From Lysinibacillus contaminans (lineage in GTDB: Bacteria > Bacillota > Bacilli > Bacillales_A > Planococcaceae): a stretch of 64,000 nt of DNA. Below are positions 26,158-32,664 of the stretch, in pieces. The notes under the pieces were generated by a model, which saw nothing but the letters and a program-made list of their open reading frames with translations, made no database searches and had not been told where the DNA came from. Location: contig NZ_LGRV01000003.1 in the NCBI RefSeq assembly GCF_001278945.1, positions 1,922,001 through 1,986,000 on the forward strand, given 5' to 3'. Numbering within the stretch: the stretch's first letter is position 1; each line of letters begins with the position of its first letter. The position numbers and the translations under genes are program-made.

Positions 26158-26385
26158 TCAGGTTGAGCGACTTGGCGCCGTGGTTGAGCGACTTGCGGCC
26201 GTGGTTGAGCGACTTGAGGGCGTGGTTGAGCGACTTGAGGCCGAGGTTGAGCGACTTGAGGCCGAGGTTGAGCGACTTGAGGCCGAGGTTGAGCGACTTG
26301 AGGCCGAGGTTGAGCGACTTGAGGCCGTGGTTGAGCGACTTTGGCTTGAGGTTGAGCGACTTCGGCTTGAGGTTGAGCGATTTCA
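26158..26385. repeat. 21-bp tandem repeat (minisatellite), about 11 units
   Basis: Ten full units and one partial unit of GGTTGAGCGACTTGAGGCCGA. The four central units (about 26221-26304) are identical and the outer ones carry 1-6 changes. Because 21 is a multiple of 3, several frames stay open on both strands: VERLEAE heptads on plus and VAQPRPQ heptads on minus. No convincing ribosome binding site precedes any of them. Confidence 0.95.
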
Positions 26386-28538: not shown

Positions 28539-28570
28539 TTGAAGTCCTCCTTTTCAAGAGAAGAAAACCG

Positions 28571-28740
28571 TAAAAAACCCTTCTGTTCCTAAAAATGGGC
28601 AGAAGGGTAGCTTGTTCGTTCATGGATCAGAACGCATCGTTTTCTTCCGTCCCTGTCTATAAAGATCAAGGCAGATATTTGTTGTTGGTTGTCTTACAGT
28701 TTGAAGGTGCCGTTCACAAAAGGATACTGCCCTTCAGCAC
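28571..28740 (-). ncRNA. panBCD leader with attenuator
   Basis: Between the promoter and panB the minus strand encodes a stem GGCAG/CUGCC enclosing a GAAGG/CCUUC hairpin, then a CGUUC/GAACG hairpin. It ends in a 9-bp terminator (ACCCUUCUG, 28599-28607, with CAGAAGGGU, 28576-28584, then U6) only ~33 bases before the panB start. A terminator ahead of the first gene implies regulated read-through. A pan RNA motif upstream of pantothenate genes is known; I cannot confirm a match by eye. Confidence 0.6.
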
Positions 28741-28742
28741 AT

Positions 28743-28772
28743 ACTATAACAGAATTTGGGTCCCATCATCAA
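28743..28772 (-). promoter_or_regulatory. promoter of the panBCD operon
   Basis: TTGATG (28767-28772) and TATAGT (28743-28748) with an 18-base spacer on the minus strand. Confidence 0.55.
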
Positions 28773-28976
28773 ACAATATTTTCTATAATTCTAATTTTCT
28801 AATTACTTTTCGCGTTAAATTAAAACCATGTCATACACCATTAAAACATTTACTATGCAATTACATCTCTAAATAACACCAAAGAGCTCACCATTTCCGG
28901 CGAGCCCTTTAGCTTACATTACATGTACAGTACCTATTTTTTATATGTCTTCTGTCGATTTGAATTTCAAAAGCGA

Positions 28977-28996
28977 AATATTAGTATTCTAATATT
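28977..28996. promoter_or_regulatory. 20-bp palindromic operator before the E1-like gene
   Basis: AATATTAGTATTCTAATATT is a near-perfect palindrome. It differs at one base from the perfect palindrome at 30998-31017 by the peptide gene. A TATAAC hexamer starts 16 bases downstream (29013-29018), so the operator occupies the -35 position, as expected for an activator site. Confidence 0.75.
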
Positions 28997-29144
28997 TGGT
29001 ATATGGAATACTTATAACTCCTGTTGTAATATAAGTTGCATTAGAACATTCAACCTATTCTAAGAGATGGTTCTATATGAAAACCGAATAGTATTTCTTT
29101 GTTGAAGATTTGATTCATCATGCCTATTTTTAAGGAGTATTCAC

Positions 29145-30131
29145 ATGATCAGAAAAAAACTAAGATATGATGCCGTGATTGTACACTACTCAGATTATGA
29201 TTTGATTCTATATAACAATAAAAGCGTTAAAATTCGTTTTCAAACTGAAGAATTCAAACATATTTATTTCCTATTAGAAAAAGGAACATCTTTAATAGAA
29301 CTAGCATCAATTCTCCCAGTAGAATACGTACAAGTACTTTGGGAATCTTTATTGCAGATGGGGGTACTTATCGACGATTGGGATAACCTTGACATTAATA
29401 GCTACGAAAAACAGCTATTTCACTTAGAAAATCTCGCACCAACTCCTATTCATTTACAACAAACACTTAGAGAAAAATGTGTAGCTATCATAGGTGTTGG
29501 CGGAATTGGTTCTGTAATATTAGATCAATTAATTCGATTAGGGGTTCAAAACTATATTTTAATAGATAGTGATGAAGTGCAAATTCATCAATTAAATAAA
29601 CAATATATGTATTCCTTAAAAGATCTCGGCTTTAATAAAGTAGATATTTGTTTTTCAAAAATTAAAGAATCTCATCCACATGGACAAGTCCTAATCTTAA
29701 AAAAACGAATCAAAAATCATGAAGACCTATCAACTATACTTCAAAAATCTAACCCTGATATTGTAATCAATGCTGCTGATGAACCTCATTATTTATATCA
29801 AGAAGTTCTAAAAGTATGTATTGAATATCAAATCCCCTTTATCACTGGAAGTATTGGTCCCCACTTTGGAAGAGTCGGTCCATTTATTGATCAACCAAGT
29901 GATATGATTCACTTTTTGGAAGATACCGAATATGAACAAAGACCTGAAAATATAAAAGTAATTAATCCTTTTTTTGGTACACCAGAACCATCAAATTGTA
30001 TTATTCCTATACTAGTTGCTTATGATGCTGTTCGTTTTCTATTGAATAAACAACCAAGCTCTTATAATAAAATATTGCATGTAGACTTTAATGATTTATC
30101 ATGTAAGACCACGCCTATAATAAATAAATAA
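29145..30131 (+). CDS. E1-like (ThiF/MccB-type) adenylating enzyme with N-terminal wing-like domain
   Basis: A 328-residue protein. Residues ~1-80 look like the small winged peptide-binding domain (RRE type) of RiPP enzymes. From ~110 comes an E1-like Rossmann domain: VAIIGVGGIGS (ATP loop, 117-123), LIDSDEV (Asp141, Asp143) and HQLNKQ, where the usual Arg of NRQ is Lys152. There are no Cys pairs for zinc, unlike MoeB/ThiF, so it is nearer to MccB or the ThiF-like proteins of thiazole bacteriocin clusters, which adenylate a peptide. AAGGAG precedes the ATG. The substrate is unknown. The shared operator suggests control by the regulator at 31010-31885. Confidence 0.8.
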   Translation: MIRKKLRYDAVIVHYSDYDLILYNNKSVKIRFQTEEFKHIYFLLEKGTSLIELASILPVEYVQVLWESLLQMGVLIDDWDNLDINSYEKQLFHLENLAPTPIHLQQTLREKCVAIIGVGGIGSVILDQLIRLGVQNYILIDSDEVQIHQLNKQYMYSLKDLGFNKVDICFSKIKESHPHGQVLILKKRIKNHEDLSTILQKSNPDIVINAADEPHYLYQEVLKVCIEYQIPFITGSIGPHFGRVGPFIDQPSDMIHFLEDTEYEQRPENIKVINPFFGTPEPSNCIIPILVAYDAVRFLLNKQPSSYNKILHVDFNDLSCKTTPIINK

Positions 30132-30170
30132 TCATTTGTTTAGTAAGCGTCAGGTAATCCCCACCTTCTA

Positions 30171-30374
30171 ATGAATTTAAAATCGCGAGACAATTACGAT
30201 TACCATTCATTAGAAAGCTTTTTCAGCCTCGATTCGAACACACTTTTTTATGGTACTCACATATTCAAGCCTTTCAATATATATGTGAAACAGATGCCGC
30301 TACTTACTGTACCAAACAGGACATACCCACACCCCTCATCTCGGCTAGCACAGTGGCTCCTAGTAAGAGATTAA
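30171..30374 (+). CDS. short open frame after the E1-like gene, doubtful
   Basis: A 67-codon frame begins 39 bases after the E1-like gene and reads SLESFFSLDSNTLFYGTHIF, then YPHPSSRLAQWLLV. It has no ribosome binding site and I recognise no family. It could be the cut-off start of a former partner gene or a chance frame. Nothing else gene-like is visible up to 30604. Confidence 0.25.
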   Translation: MNLKSRDNYDYHSLESFFSLDSNTLFYGTHIFKPFNIYVKQMPLLTVPNRTYPHPSSRLAQWLLVRD

Positions 30375-30604
30375 AAAACCATCATTTTGATTAGCCAACT
30401 ACCTACTCATCTCCTATAACGTTGACAGTTTAGATGGTTATTAGAACTTGTTGCTATGCAAAAAAATTAGCACAATCGCAGGTTTCAGAAACGTTGTAAT
30501 TTGAATAAAGAGTTCAGCATTACTTGTTCAGATTTTTTAACCAAATTATCGGACAACATACTGCCTTTCAATTAAAAAAATTGTAATGACGTATGCCAAG
30601 TTGT

Positions 30605-30668
30605 AAAAACAAAAGTAAGCGACAAATAGCTCCCACTGAATAACAGTTAGGTGCTATTTGTCGCTTAC
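30605..30668 (-). terminator. strong terminator of the regulator-peptide unit
   Basis: GTAAGCGACAAATAGC pairs perfectly over 16 bp (30615-30630 with 30653-30668), with a further inner stem, and TTTTGTTTTT follows on the minus strand. Confidence 0.85.
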
Positions 30669-30809
30669 GAAAGTAGGTATGCATTTGATGTTATCTCCAG
30701 CTTTCCCTGCTATATACCTCCACGTATAAACTGTCCATCTATTGTTAAATACAAGTACTTATACTTGGTGGCCAATCCATTCCATACCATATCCGAGAAA
30801 TGGGAGCAA

Positions 30810-30878
30810 TTACTTAATTAAGAATTGGATGTAGTTGTAAGGTAAATCGCTTAATAATGTAATGAAAAAATCTAACAT
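30810..30878 (-). CDS. putative PapR-like signalling peptide precursor (22 residues)
   Basis: The ATG at 30876-30878 has GAGGTG 9 bases upstream. The product starts with a hydrophobic MLDFFITLL, then SDLPYNY, then IQFLIK and stop. In the B. cereus group the active PapR heptapeptides are ADLPFEF, SDMPFEF, NEVPFEF and SDLPFEH, so SDLPYNY fits the pattern closely. It lies 131 bases after a PlcR-like regulator gene on the same strand, as papR follows plcR, with a palindromic operator between. Differences: the core is not C-terminal and there is no classic signal peptide. In-frame codons after the stop stay open for 16 residues, so decay of a longer gene is an alternative. Confidence 0.6.
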   Translation of the reverse strand: MLDFFITLLSDLPYNYIQFLIK

Positions 30879-30997
30879 ACTTGTTCTCACCTCAATTTTT
30901 AAAATATTCGCTTTTAAAAAGGTAATAGTAACTATTTTTATACTTTACCTTCTTTCTATGTAATTTTATATTATTTAAGTAATAAATCTACTAAAAT

Positions 30998-31017
30998 AAT
31001 ATTAGAATTCTAATATT
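30998..31017. promoter_or_regulatory. perfect 20-bp palindrome before the peptide gene
   Basis: AATATTAGAATTCTAATATT is self-complementary and overlaps the regulator's stop codon. A TATTAC hexamer lies 13 bases downstream on the minus strand (30979-30984), and the peptide ATG is about 120 bases on. The same site, with one change, precedes the E1-like gene at 28977. Probable binding site of the PlcR-like regulator. Confidence 0.75.
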
Positions 31018-31885
31018 TCAAAAAAGAATTATTTTTTGAATTAATATAGCTAATTAATAAATCATCTTTGCTATTTAAAGCGAGGTGATAGGCTATGTTA
31101 TAGGATTCTTTAAAACTACATATCCCTATAATCTCTTCATTATACGCCTTTTCATAATAAAGGTAACTTAAACGAAATTGTGTTAATATTTGAGGTTTAT
31201 TTGCCCATTCAATCCCAGCATTTGCTACACTTAGAGATTTTTCATATTTCCCTAGTTTAGAATATGAATTAGCAATATTGAAAAATACCATTGTAAGTTT
31301 GCTTTCATTTCGAATTTTCCGACTCTTATTAATTGTAGAAAGAATTAAATCAAAATAGCCAAATCCTTCATCTACCATACCTAGTTTCAACATCATAATG
31401 CCAATATTATTAAGTATTAAATATTCTTCTAGAGATAAATGTTCTTTGTCTTGAAAATATGTGATTTTAAGAGATTCCTCCAATAATTCAAACGCTTGAT
31501 AATACTCATTTTTTACAAAACCTTGATATAGACCTTTATAAAATAACAGTAATTGTTGATCTAATTTTGTATGCAAGTAAATTTTTCTAAAATGAGAGTT
31601 AATAGTATTATTAATTTCTTCATATTTTCTTTGGTAAAATAATTGCGATAAATATTCTAGCAGTTCATTTTGTAGTTGTATTGCCGTTTCGCTTTCTTGA
31701 TATTCCATTTCGGTTAATGGCAAGTCCAATTTATTACATATTTCAACAAAAATCATTAAATTAGGAATATGTTTGTTCCTCTCGATTTGACTAAGCATTC
31801 CTTGTGAACATATACCCTCACTCAATTCTTTTTGTGACAACCCCTTTAACTTTCTAGCGTTTTTTATTTTTTCTCCTAGTAACAT
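31010..31885 (-). CDS. PlcR-like (RRNPP family) peptide-responsive transcriptional regulator
   Basis: A 291-residue protein with an XRE helix-turn-helix at ~5-60 (IKNARKLKGLSQKELSEGIC, then MLSQIERNKHIPN) and a C-terminal TPR array (FFNIANSYSKLGKYEKSLSV, FRLSYLYYEKAYNE). Size and layout match PlcR of the B. cereus group. Such regulators bind a re-imported heptapeptide in the TPR groove and activate from palindromic boxes. ATG 31885 lies 7 bases after GGAGG; the TTG just before is less likely. A candidate peptide gene follows 131 bases downstream. I found no copy of the palindrome in front of this gene. Confidence 0.85.
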   Translation of the reverse strand: MLLGEKIKNARKLKGLSQKELSEGICSQGMLSQIERNKHIPNLMIFVEICNKLDLPLTEMEYQESETAIQLQNELLEYLSQLFYQRKYEEINNTINSHFRKIYLHTKLDQQLLLFYKGLYQGFVKNEYYQAFELLEESLKITYFQDKEHLSLEEYLILNNIGIMMLKLGMVDEGFGYFDLILSTINKSRKIRNESKLTMVFFNIANSYSKLGKYEKSLSVANAGIEWANKPQILTQFRLSYLYYEKAYNEEIIGICSFKESYNIAYHLALNSKDDLLISYINSKNNSFLKY

Positions 31886-32570
31886 CAATACCCCTCCATT
31901 ATATGTTCAAATAATTCCACCATTTTTTAGGTAGTCGTTTGTATATGCTTTGTTTAGTATAATAAGTAATTTGTAGTCTGAGAGTTTGTCTCCAACAATA
32001 GCAAGAACTGATCAAGTGCGGCTTTGTCTATCAGGTCGATTAATAGTAATTATTCCAAAATGTACGTTAAATAAAGGAGAATACTTCTTCCATCCATAGG
32101 AACAGGTAAATTTATTAATTTTTTCATACAAAAAAAATTTCGTCAGAAAATCTTTCTAGTATACAGTTGAATTGTCGAGCACCCGTTTCAACACCAATAT
32201 TTTCATCGTAATAAATTGGCAAGTGCTCTTACAAATTACTTTTCTTCAAAAAGACTTTTTGTTACAACTAGGGTTAAAAAAATCAAAGATCATTATTTGT
32301 TTTTCGAATTAGTTAAGTACTCAAAATTTTTTCACTCTAGTAAACTTTACAGCTTTTTTAAACAGTCATTTTAAAACTCCTCACATATTTTCACATTCAC
32401 TCCATCTGCCTGTCAATAGAATACATTTTTCTTATTTTTTAATTAATGCATCAACTTTCAATTTAAAATCCTATCTTTGGAATTCAAATTTTATTACTCT
32501 TAAAGAAGGTTTTTTAATATATCCATTGTCTCTTCTAAGCTTTAGTTTTCAACGGATTATTTTGTATTTA
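31886..32570. other. non-coding gap with possible decayed coding traces
   Basis: No intact gene. A minus-strand stretch near 32150-32225 reads HLPIYYDENIGVETGARQFN and then ILERFSDEI without a start, which could be a gene remnant; I do not recognise it. Confidence 0.3.
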
Positions 32571-32599
32571 TTGACAAATCATATTATACGCCATATACT
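32571..32599 (+). promoter_or_regulatory. promoter of the padR-HAAS-DUF4097 operon
   Basis: TTGACA (32571-32576), 17 bases, TATACT (32594-32599). Directly downstream, repeated ATATACTAT and CATATAAT half-sites (32590-32630) could be the PadR operator. Confidence 0.75.
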
Positions 32600-32664
32600 A
32601 TCCATATACTATACAGCATATAATATAAAACCTTGTATAGGGATAGAAATGTGAGGTGGATAAG

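What the first reader, a model, noticed from the sequence alone, without database searches (positions are those of the whole stretch)
28977..31885. Compact PlcR-PapR-like quorum-sensing cassette wired to an E1-like peptide-modifying enzyme
Seen: a PlcR-sized XRE-TPR regulator (31010-31885), a 22-codon gene behind it on the same strand, and the same 20-bp palindrome in front of that gene and of an E1-like enzyme gene (29145-30131). Known: RRNPP regulators bind exported and re-imported peptides and activate from palindromes; ThiF/MccB-type enzymes adenylate peptides. Inference: cell density switches on the peptide (positive feedback) and the enzyme, making an unknown modified peptide or product. 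The cassette is inserted between panB and birA, which are neighbours in B. subtilis.
Basis: partly seen in the sequence, partly recalled or inferred. Interest (0 to 1): 0.88.

Follow-up and report, generated by a model that had tools for sequence, protein, structure and literature searches.

The report
Minimal quorum-sensing cassette with MccB-like enzyme
A small block of probably imported DNA carries a cell-density sensor, a tiny peptide gene that is probably its signal, and a peptide-activating type of enzyme that shares the same control sequence; it is a stripped-down relative of known bacterial systems, with an unusual active site in the enzyme.

Summary
In detail: a PlcR-type HTH-TPR regulator (31010-31885, -), a 22-codon ORF with a strong ribosome-binding site (30810-30878, -), an E1-like gene (29145-30131, +), and a 20-bp palindrome before ORF and enzyme. 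No third copy lies in the assembly at two or fewer mismatches; 0 of 300 shuffles gave such a pair. The block is an AT-rich insert in a variable site between panB and padR; of 32 species of the genus only this one has it. Best PDB relatives are PlcR and MccB. PlcR/TprA-type regulators recur beside MccB-like genes (7 of 46 loci, 0 of 78 controls), and streptococcal RRNPP-ThiF clusters are published, so the wiring is of a known kind. Unusual here: only three genes; a PapR-like core (SDLPYNY) that is internal, in a peptide without obvious export signal; and Q149/K152 in the enzyme where 154 of 154 and 153 of 154 homologues have Asn and Arg. Most likely: density-controlled positive feedback plus co-induction of the E1-like protein. 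Whether it modifies anything is open; neither peptide frame nor palindrome was seen elsewhere.

The parts
28790..32570 (.). Inserted AT-rich block (GC 0.296; approximate limits) between the panB leader and the padR promoter
   Evidence: blastn to 12 sister regions covers only about 28540-28790 and 32570-32655; one further 36-nt match at about 28823-28857 to L202; GC
28977..28996 (.). 20-bp palindrome, copy 1, 148 bp upstream of the E1-like gene
29145..30131 (+). E1/ThiF-fold protein, 328 aa, MccB-like, with about 95-aa N-terminal extension; Q149 and K152 replace near-invariant Asn and Arg
   Evidence: PF00899 4.2e-31; MccB E 1.4e-18; residues
30810..30878 (-). 22-codon peptide gene, MLDFFITLLSDLPYNYIQFLIK, PapR-like core SDLPYNY
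   Evidence: ORF and SD GAGGTGA; motif chance
30998..31017 (.). 20-bp palindrome, copy 2, 119 bp upstream of the peptide start, overlapping the regulator's stop codon
31010..31885 (-). PlcR-type HTH-TPR (RRNPP) regulator, 291 aa
   Evidence: HTH_3 2.2e-11; PlcR 2qfc
30615..30668 (.). Hairpin with 19-nt arms between the convergent genes; possibly a bidirectional transcription stop (inference; no T tract)
   Evidence: only copy in the assembly

Best explanation
A three-gene cassette, probably acquired horizontally, in which a PlcR-branch RRNPP regulator is activated by a peptide derived from the adjacent 22-aa ORF (core SDLPYNY) and then binds the shared 20-bp palindrome, switching on the peptide gene (positive feedback) and the MccB-like E1 gene at high cell density. 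Shown here: gene anatomy, family relationships, uniqueness and pairing of the palindrome, recurrence of the regulator-MccB pairing. Inferred: export or release and re-uptake of the peptide, its binding, the palindrome as operator, activation rather than repression, and that the E1-like protein acts on a peptide.
For: Palindrome at only two sites in the assembly (2 or fewer mismatches), each before one of the two genes. Regulator like PlcR over its full length; PlcR Asn159 and Asn201 are kept and Lys89 is Arg in the pairwise alignment. 22-aa ORF with the best SD of the scanned stretches; PapR-like core expected in 19 of 200,000 random ORFs by the strict pattern, 298 by the loose one. 7 of 19 loci of PlcR-type regulators carry a peptide ending ...RLPYQH, PDLPSQH (two near-copies), YTLPFQH (two near-copies), LELPLMH or LDLPFVH. 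PapRa7 CSIPYEY is internal in its precursor (PMC3519770, passages). RRNPP regulator in 7 of 46 MccB-like loci, 0 of 78 controls; one of the seven, L328, is in the window's family and has the LDLPFVH peptide.
Against: No close homologue of the whole cassette was found, so no conservation test of peptide or palindrome. No obvious signal sequence (by eye; no predictor at hand); six residues follow the core. The loose motif occurs internally in 17 of 822 other ORFs around the 19 regulators, and 12 of the 19 loci showed no peptide of this type. PlcR Lys87 is Tyr and Gln237 is Tyr here. The palindrome keeps only TAT/ATA of the PlcR box TATGNAN4TNCATA. No shared palindrome pair of this quality in the five RRNPP-MccB loci examined. 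PF18768 RNPP_C is not hit at E 0.1. Enzyme active-site changes Q149/K152.
Confidence: 0.55

Rival explanations
1. The 22-aa peptide is the substrate (RiPP precursor) of the E1-like enzyme, not or not only the pheromone: the enzyme activates its C-terminal carboxylate and cyclises or caps it, as reported for EnfB with the 21-aa EnfA and IndF with IndA; the product is the signal or a secreted effector. (Odds of the rivals overlap with the best explanation, which leaves the enzyme's substrate open.)
For: It is the only strong-SD small ORF in the scanned stretches and shares the enzyme's palindrome; length close to EnfA (21 aa, PMC12250964 section 18); a minimal ThiF-like cluster is described (PMC12150305, part 1 of 3).
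Against: For all 8 other members of the enzyme's clade I could pick a 15-26 aa SD-bearing ORF upstream, 7 of 8 ending in R-[T/S/C]; this peptide ends in LIK, lacks Trp and Cys, and is not next to the enzyme start. Active-site changes.
Confidence: 0.18
2. The E1-like protein is no longer an adenylating enzyme: a remnant of a lost MccB-type cluster, or a pseudo-enzyme kept as a peptide-binding protein; the cassette is in decay or repurposed.
For: Gln where 154 of 154 and Lys where 153 of 154 homologues have Asn and Arg; in PaaA the R174A change sharply reduces activity and in EnfB Arg167 is called essential (review passage and section); a clade-type precursor with SD and solute-binding or exporter genes are absent and left no clear remnants.
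Against: Intact 328-aa frame with a good SD and its own palindrome; Lys165 and Asp212 kept.
Confidence: 0.2
3. The regulator answers another signal, or the palindrome belongs to a different regulator; the 22-aa ORF is chance.
For: Peptide lacks an obvious signal sequence and C-terminal placement of the core; palindrome does not match the PlcR box.
Against: Palindrome exists only here and sits at the regulator's own 3' end; SD and motif are unlikely together by chance.
Confidence: 0.15

Closest known systems
PlcR-PapR / PlcRa-PapRa (Bacillus cereus group)
   Same: Regulator of the same size, full-length profile match; peptide gene beside the regulator, core SDLPYNY against ADLPFEF and CSIPYEY; palindrome before target and peptide genes
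   Different: Peptide short, no obvious signal sequence, core internal; palindrome shares only TAT/ATA with the PlcR box; two sites in the assembly instead of a large regulon
TprA/PapR-like RRNPP with MccB-like cluster in Lactobacillales (e.g. locus L143, G262)
   Same: PlcR/TprA-type regulator next to an MccB-like gene
   Different: There: separate 45-aa signal-bearing peptide, 17-aa precursor, solute-binding-like protein, PepF-like peptidase, MFS (names by my reading); here none of these
Microcin C (MccB), pantocin (PaaA), GrcB, enterofaecin (EnfB), IndF ThiF-like RiPP enzymes
   Same: ThiF fold plus an N-terminal extension of about 95 aa; MccB is the best PDB hit
   Different: No MccA-type precursor or exporter adjacent; two near-invariant active-site residues replaced; no CxxC
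Leaderless communication peptides (RopB-LCP)
   Same: Short hydrophobic peptide without obvious leader beside an RRNPP regulator; the paper (passages) lists Lysinibacillus sphaericus among the exceptions in length and suggests processing
   Different: Regulator here is PlcR-like, not RopB; most LCPs are 8-10 aa

Membership tests
RRNPP, PlcR branch | N-terminal HTH DNA-binding domain | tested here: met
   PF01381 2.2e-11, above its cut-off
RRNPP, PlcR branch | C-terminal TPR superhelix homologous to PlcR | tested here: met
   Profile of P0002 and 11 relatives hits PlcR 1-287 at 9.4e-53; single-sequence E 1e-11 over 3-246; Pfam TPR models stay under their cut-offs. Fold not modelled.
RRNPP, PlcR branch | Pfam RNPP_C (PF18768) | tested here: not met
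   Absent at E up to 0.1 for P0002; present in L328 and L335, absent at E up to 0.01 in L143. It is thus not held by all relatives.
RRNPP, PlcR branch | Adjacent small propeptide gene | tested here: met
   22-aa ORF with 7-nt SD match; translation not shown
RRNPP, PlcR branch | Propeptide with Sec signal and C-terminal pheromone | tested here: inconclusive
   No K-rich N-terminus, core followed by IQFLIK, judged by eye; no signal predictor
RRNPP, PlcR branch | PlcR box TATGNAN4TNCATA (PlcR itself; PlcRa targets lack it) | tested here: not met
   TATTAGNATTCTAATA keeps 6 of 10 fixed positions
RRNPP, PlcR branch | Peptide-dependent DNA binding | not testable with these tools
   -
MccB-type ThiF-like RiPP enzyme | ThiF/E1 adenylation fold | tested here: met
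   PF00899; MccB best in PDB
MccB-type ThiF-like RiPP enzyme | N-terminal RiPP recognition element | tested here: inconclusive
   Extension of right size; A4 profile aligns with MccB from chain residue 56; N-terminal domain alone gave no hhalign match; structure prediction unavailable
MccB-type ThiF-like RiPP enzyme | Active-site Asn, Arg, Lys, Asp | tested here: not met
   Lys165 and Asp212 kept; Gln149 for Asn, Lys152 for Arg
MccB-type ThiF-like RiPP enzyme | Adjacent precursor peptide of the family's type | tested here: not met
   In 28540-32650 one ORF ends R[TSC] (32012-32131, -, TTG, 3-nt SD match), judged chance; no ORF ending in Asn in the enzyme leader
MccB-type ThiF-like RiPP enzyme | Exporter in the cluster | tested here: not met
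   No such ORF in the insert; no clear remnants

The most novel reading that the evidence does not exclude
A self-contained three-gene loop in which an E1-like protein with a re-tooled ATP site acts on, or captures, the very peptide that the PlcR-type receptor senses, so that the autoinducer itself is enzymatically activated or sequestered: an E1-processed RRNPP pheromone.
Probability: 0.12. Interest if true: 0.85.

Novelty: new variant of a known kind. Interest (0 to 1): 0.46.

Why it matters
It brings RRNPP-linked ThiF-like peptide chemistry, which the papers I saw describe mainly in streptococci and enterococci, to a Bacillales genus in the smallest form seen here: sensor, signal candidate, enzyme and two copies of the presumed operator in under 3 kb. 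The small size makes signal, operator and enzyme substrate directly testable in a laboratory strain, and the altered active site asks whether MccB-like proteins can be repurposed.

Tried and rejected
Looked for and not found: an MccA-like precursor in the enzyme leader (MVLYENRIVFLC, MIHHAYF and similar ORFs there have no SD match of 5); clear remnants of solute-binding, MFS or PepF-like genes in the gaps (best E 5.7e-4 to a 61-aa ORF that overlaps a real gene); plasmid homologues of the insert at DNA level (only a 69-nt match to two Buchnera records); P0001 in genome contigs and P0002 in viral contigs by single-protein scans; a trans-encoded partner (own-assembly search with one solute-binding protein gives two proteins at 24-25% identity); the palindrome upstream of relatives' peptides (TAT-N10-ATA strings occur at some, none a perfect 16-nt palindrome). 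Anti-phage E1-E2 reading rejected: the 25 PADLOC families shown match mainly the ThiF core. Housekeeping MoeB/ThiF reading rejected: the cut-offs of all 25 listed NCBIfam families (of 28) are missed and the assembly has a separate MoeB-size match. RRE by profile comparison of the N-terminal domain gave nothing, with weak power.

Caveats on counts: the 46 MccB-like loci include several of one genus, a near-duplicate pair (L336, L344), one partial regulator match (L167), and L143, whose regulator was itself in the profile; they also came partly from a query (A4) that held L143. Fisher p is 0.0007 for 7 of 46; leaving out L143, then L344, then L167 gives 6 of 45 (0.0019), 5 of 44 (0.0052), 4 of 43 (0.0145), each against 0 of 78. 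Weaker HTH hits in L331, L342 and L346 were not counted. The 78 controls are mostly Paenibacillus housekeeping E1 loci from other genomes, some shorter; L217, L234 and L272 may be MccB-like themselves (without them, 4 of 43 against 0 of 75, p 0.016). The clade precursors were picked by me among the listed small ORFs. The tree branch (90/91) is under the tool's starred level and the window row is a long branch. The motif patterns were written after seeing the peptide. Assembly completeness is 86%, so a missing partner elsewhere is possible. The paper searches show capped lists (20 of 224, 20 of 43, 15 of 22, 10 of 66).

Full report
What is there. The insert holds two large genes, tail to tail: an E1-like gene (29145-30131, +) and an HTH-TPR regulator gene (31010-31885, -). 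A 22-codon ORF (30810-30878, -) lies downstream of the regulator with a 7-nt Shine-Dalgarno match; the 15 other starts listed for the scanned stretches have 5. The palindrome AATATTAGnATTCTAATATT stands 148 bp before the enzyme and 119 bp before the ORF. In the 4.1-Mb assembly it has no third copy at two or fewer mismatches, and no such pair arose in 300 shuffles.

Where it sits. The DUF1700-like neighbour of padR was found in 32 of 32 species of the genus. In twelve sisters fetched, the panB-padR gap is short in six (263-545 bp: G006, G023, G029, G012, G031, G027), carries an IS30-like transposase ORF in G007, a TetR-like gene with a CPBP-like gene in G014, G003 and G001 (in pieces in G003), and a TetR-like gene with an ABC-type system in G010 and G015, where panB was not found within the 6.5 kb taken (gene names here and for padR, DUF1700, birA are my reading of the translations). 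Only the panB leader side (with an Rfam pan motif) and the padR promoter align with the window, which sets the insert at about 28790-32570. Its GC is 0.296, against 0.378 for the window. So this looks like cargo in a variable site. Of 32 species searched, only this one has this enzyme and regulator; six others have distinct MccB-like genes at E 1e-14 or better.

The regulator. Pfam finds HTH_3 and weak TPRs. PlcR is the best PDB hit (E 1e-11) and, with a profile of 12 sequences, matches over its full length at 9.4e-53. In the pairwise alignment PlcR Asn159 and Asn201 are kept, Lys89 is Arg, Lys87 and Gln237 are Tyr. PMC6568020 (passages) names Lys89, Gln237 and Tyr275 as contacts of the PapR glutamate; here the peptide has Asn at that place. 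That Asn159 and Asn201 hold the peptide backbone in PlcR is recalled (for PlcRa, a docking model names N205 and K208).

The peptide. SDLPYNY resembles PapR7 ADLPFEF (PMC6568020) and PapRa7 CSIPYEY (PMC3519770, passages). In 7 of 19 loci of PlcR-type regulators I found a neighbouring peptide ending in LPYQH, LPSQH, LPFQH, LPLMH or LPFVH (L078, L079, L080, L153, L154, L155, L328; two near-identical pairs, so five distinct peptides); 12 of 19 showed none by this pattern. Random ORFs of the same composition match the strict pattern in 19 and the loose one in 298 of 200,000. Against the reading: in those relatives the motif is at the C-terminus of longer peptides, mostly signal-like by eye, whereas here it is internal and the peptide shows no export signal. 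An internal pheromone (PapRa) and leaderless pheromones (PMC10518010, passages) are precedents.

The enzyme. MccB is the best PDB hit alone (1.4e-18) and with a seven-sequence profile (7e-46, with PaaA at 1.7e-23). The best named relatives are in Bacillus changyiensis and B. atrophaeus (31% over residues 3-328). In a 32-row tree it joins L085, L086, L142, L143, L214, L215, L328 and L329 with support 90/91. For each of these eight I could pick a 15-26 aa SD-bearing ORF upstream of the enzyme; seven end in R-T, R-S or R-C and one in RRTVL. Six downstream neighbours were scanned: Pfam SBP_bac_5 passes its cut-off in L142, L328 and L215, is sub-threshold in L329, and is absent in L143 and L085; L214 looks like L215 by eye. 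The window has no such neighbour and no comparable precursor. Among 154 distinct homologues from the fetched loci, including housekeeping MoeB/ThiF types, Asn is found at position 149 in 154 and Arg at 152 in 153; the window has Gln and Lys. The review PMC12250964 (passages and sections 15 and 18) reports Arg174 as important in PaaA and Arg167 as essential in EnfB; that these correspond to position 152 is my inference. So activity must be shown, not assumed.

Recurrence of the wiring. A profile of PlcR/TprA-like regulators finds one in 7 of 46 MccB-like loci and in 0 of 78 other E1 loci (Fisher p 0.0007, weakening to 0.0145 when three questionable loci are dropped). L143 (G262) is the fullest case: regulator, 45-aa signal-bearing peptide, 17-aa precursor, MccB-like enzyme, solute-binding-like protein, PepF-like peptidase and MFS (names by my reading). 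Its 45-aa peptide closely resembles the PapR/TprA-like peptide listed for Streptococcus thermophilus JIM8232 in PMC12445099 (passages). L328, from the window's own family, has the regulator with a LDLPFVH peptide about 3 kb from an MccB-like gene with two identical 18-aa precursors.

Published background. PMC12445099 (passages) reports ThiF or radical-SAM enzyme genes around 11 of 21 rgg regions in S. thermophilus. PMC10075063 (passages) infers 196 gene clusters under RRNPP control. GrcB, EnfB and IndF show what ThiF-like enzymes do to peptides. In the capped listings of my searches of the open library I saw no paper about a PlcR-type regulator controlling an MccB-like gene outside Lactobacillales; that library lacks most subscription journals.

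Verdict. The most likely working is a PlcR-PapR-like density switch that co-induces its peptide and an MccB-like protein. The general wiring is known, so this is a new, minimal variant. Its odd points are the absence of a family-type precursor, the leaderless-looking peptide, and the two active-site replacements. They leave three live readings for the enzyme: it acts on the peptide, it acts on something encoded elsewhere, or it no longer adenylates.

Noticed in passing
window 26160-26380: 10.5 copies of a 21-bp repeat (93% match) between the panD-like and dinG-like ORFs, with long open frames on both strands (gene names by my reading).
   Followed up: no
window 30615-30668: Hairpin with 19-nt arms (-33.5 kcal/mol for 30600-30690, z -5.97) without a T tract, single copy in the assembly.
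   Followed up: partly
panB-padR gap in sister species, e.g. L202, L207, L208, L209, L211: Variable site holding different genes in different species of the genus.
   Followed up: partly
L214 9537-11165 and L215 9540-11165: An ABC-F-like ATPase gene follows the MccB-like, solute-binding-like and MFS-like genes in Bacillus changyiensis and B. atrophaeus, perhaps self-protection against a ribosome-directed product (names from my reading).
   Followed up: no
L328 7343-7490: Two tandem identical 18-aa precursor ORFs MRIVKVKPTTKRLLVNRS upstream of an MccB-like gene.
   Followed up: no
L072, L073, L074 upstream of the MccB-like gene: 10-aa ORFs (MNPHFRNGDR, MLPAFRNGDR) with SD before MccB-like plus MFS-like pairs in three species of the window's genus: candidate microcin C-like clusters.
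   Followed up: no
L347 5559-6393: Broken MccB-like copy (two ORFs) beside solute-binding-like and PepF-like genes in G016.
   Followed up: no
L087 2217-5145: In a Staphylococcus aureus plasmid the solute-binding-like and PepF-like genes beside an MccB-like gene are each split into two ORFs.
   Followed up: no
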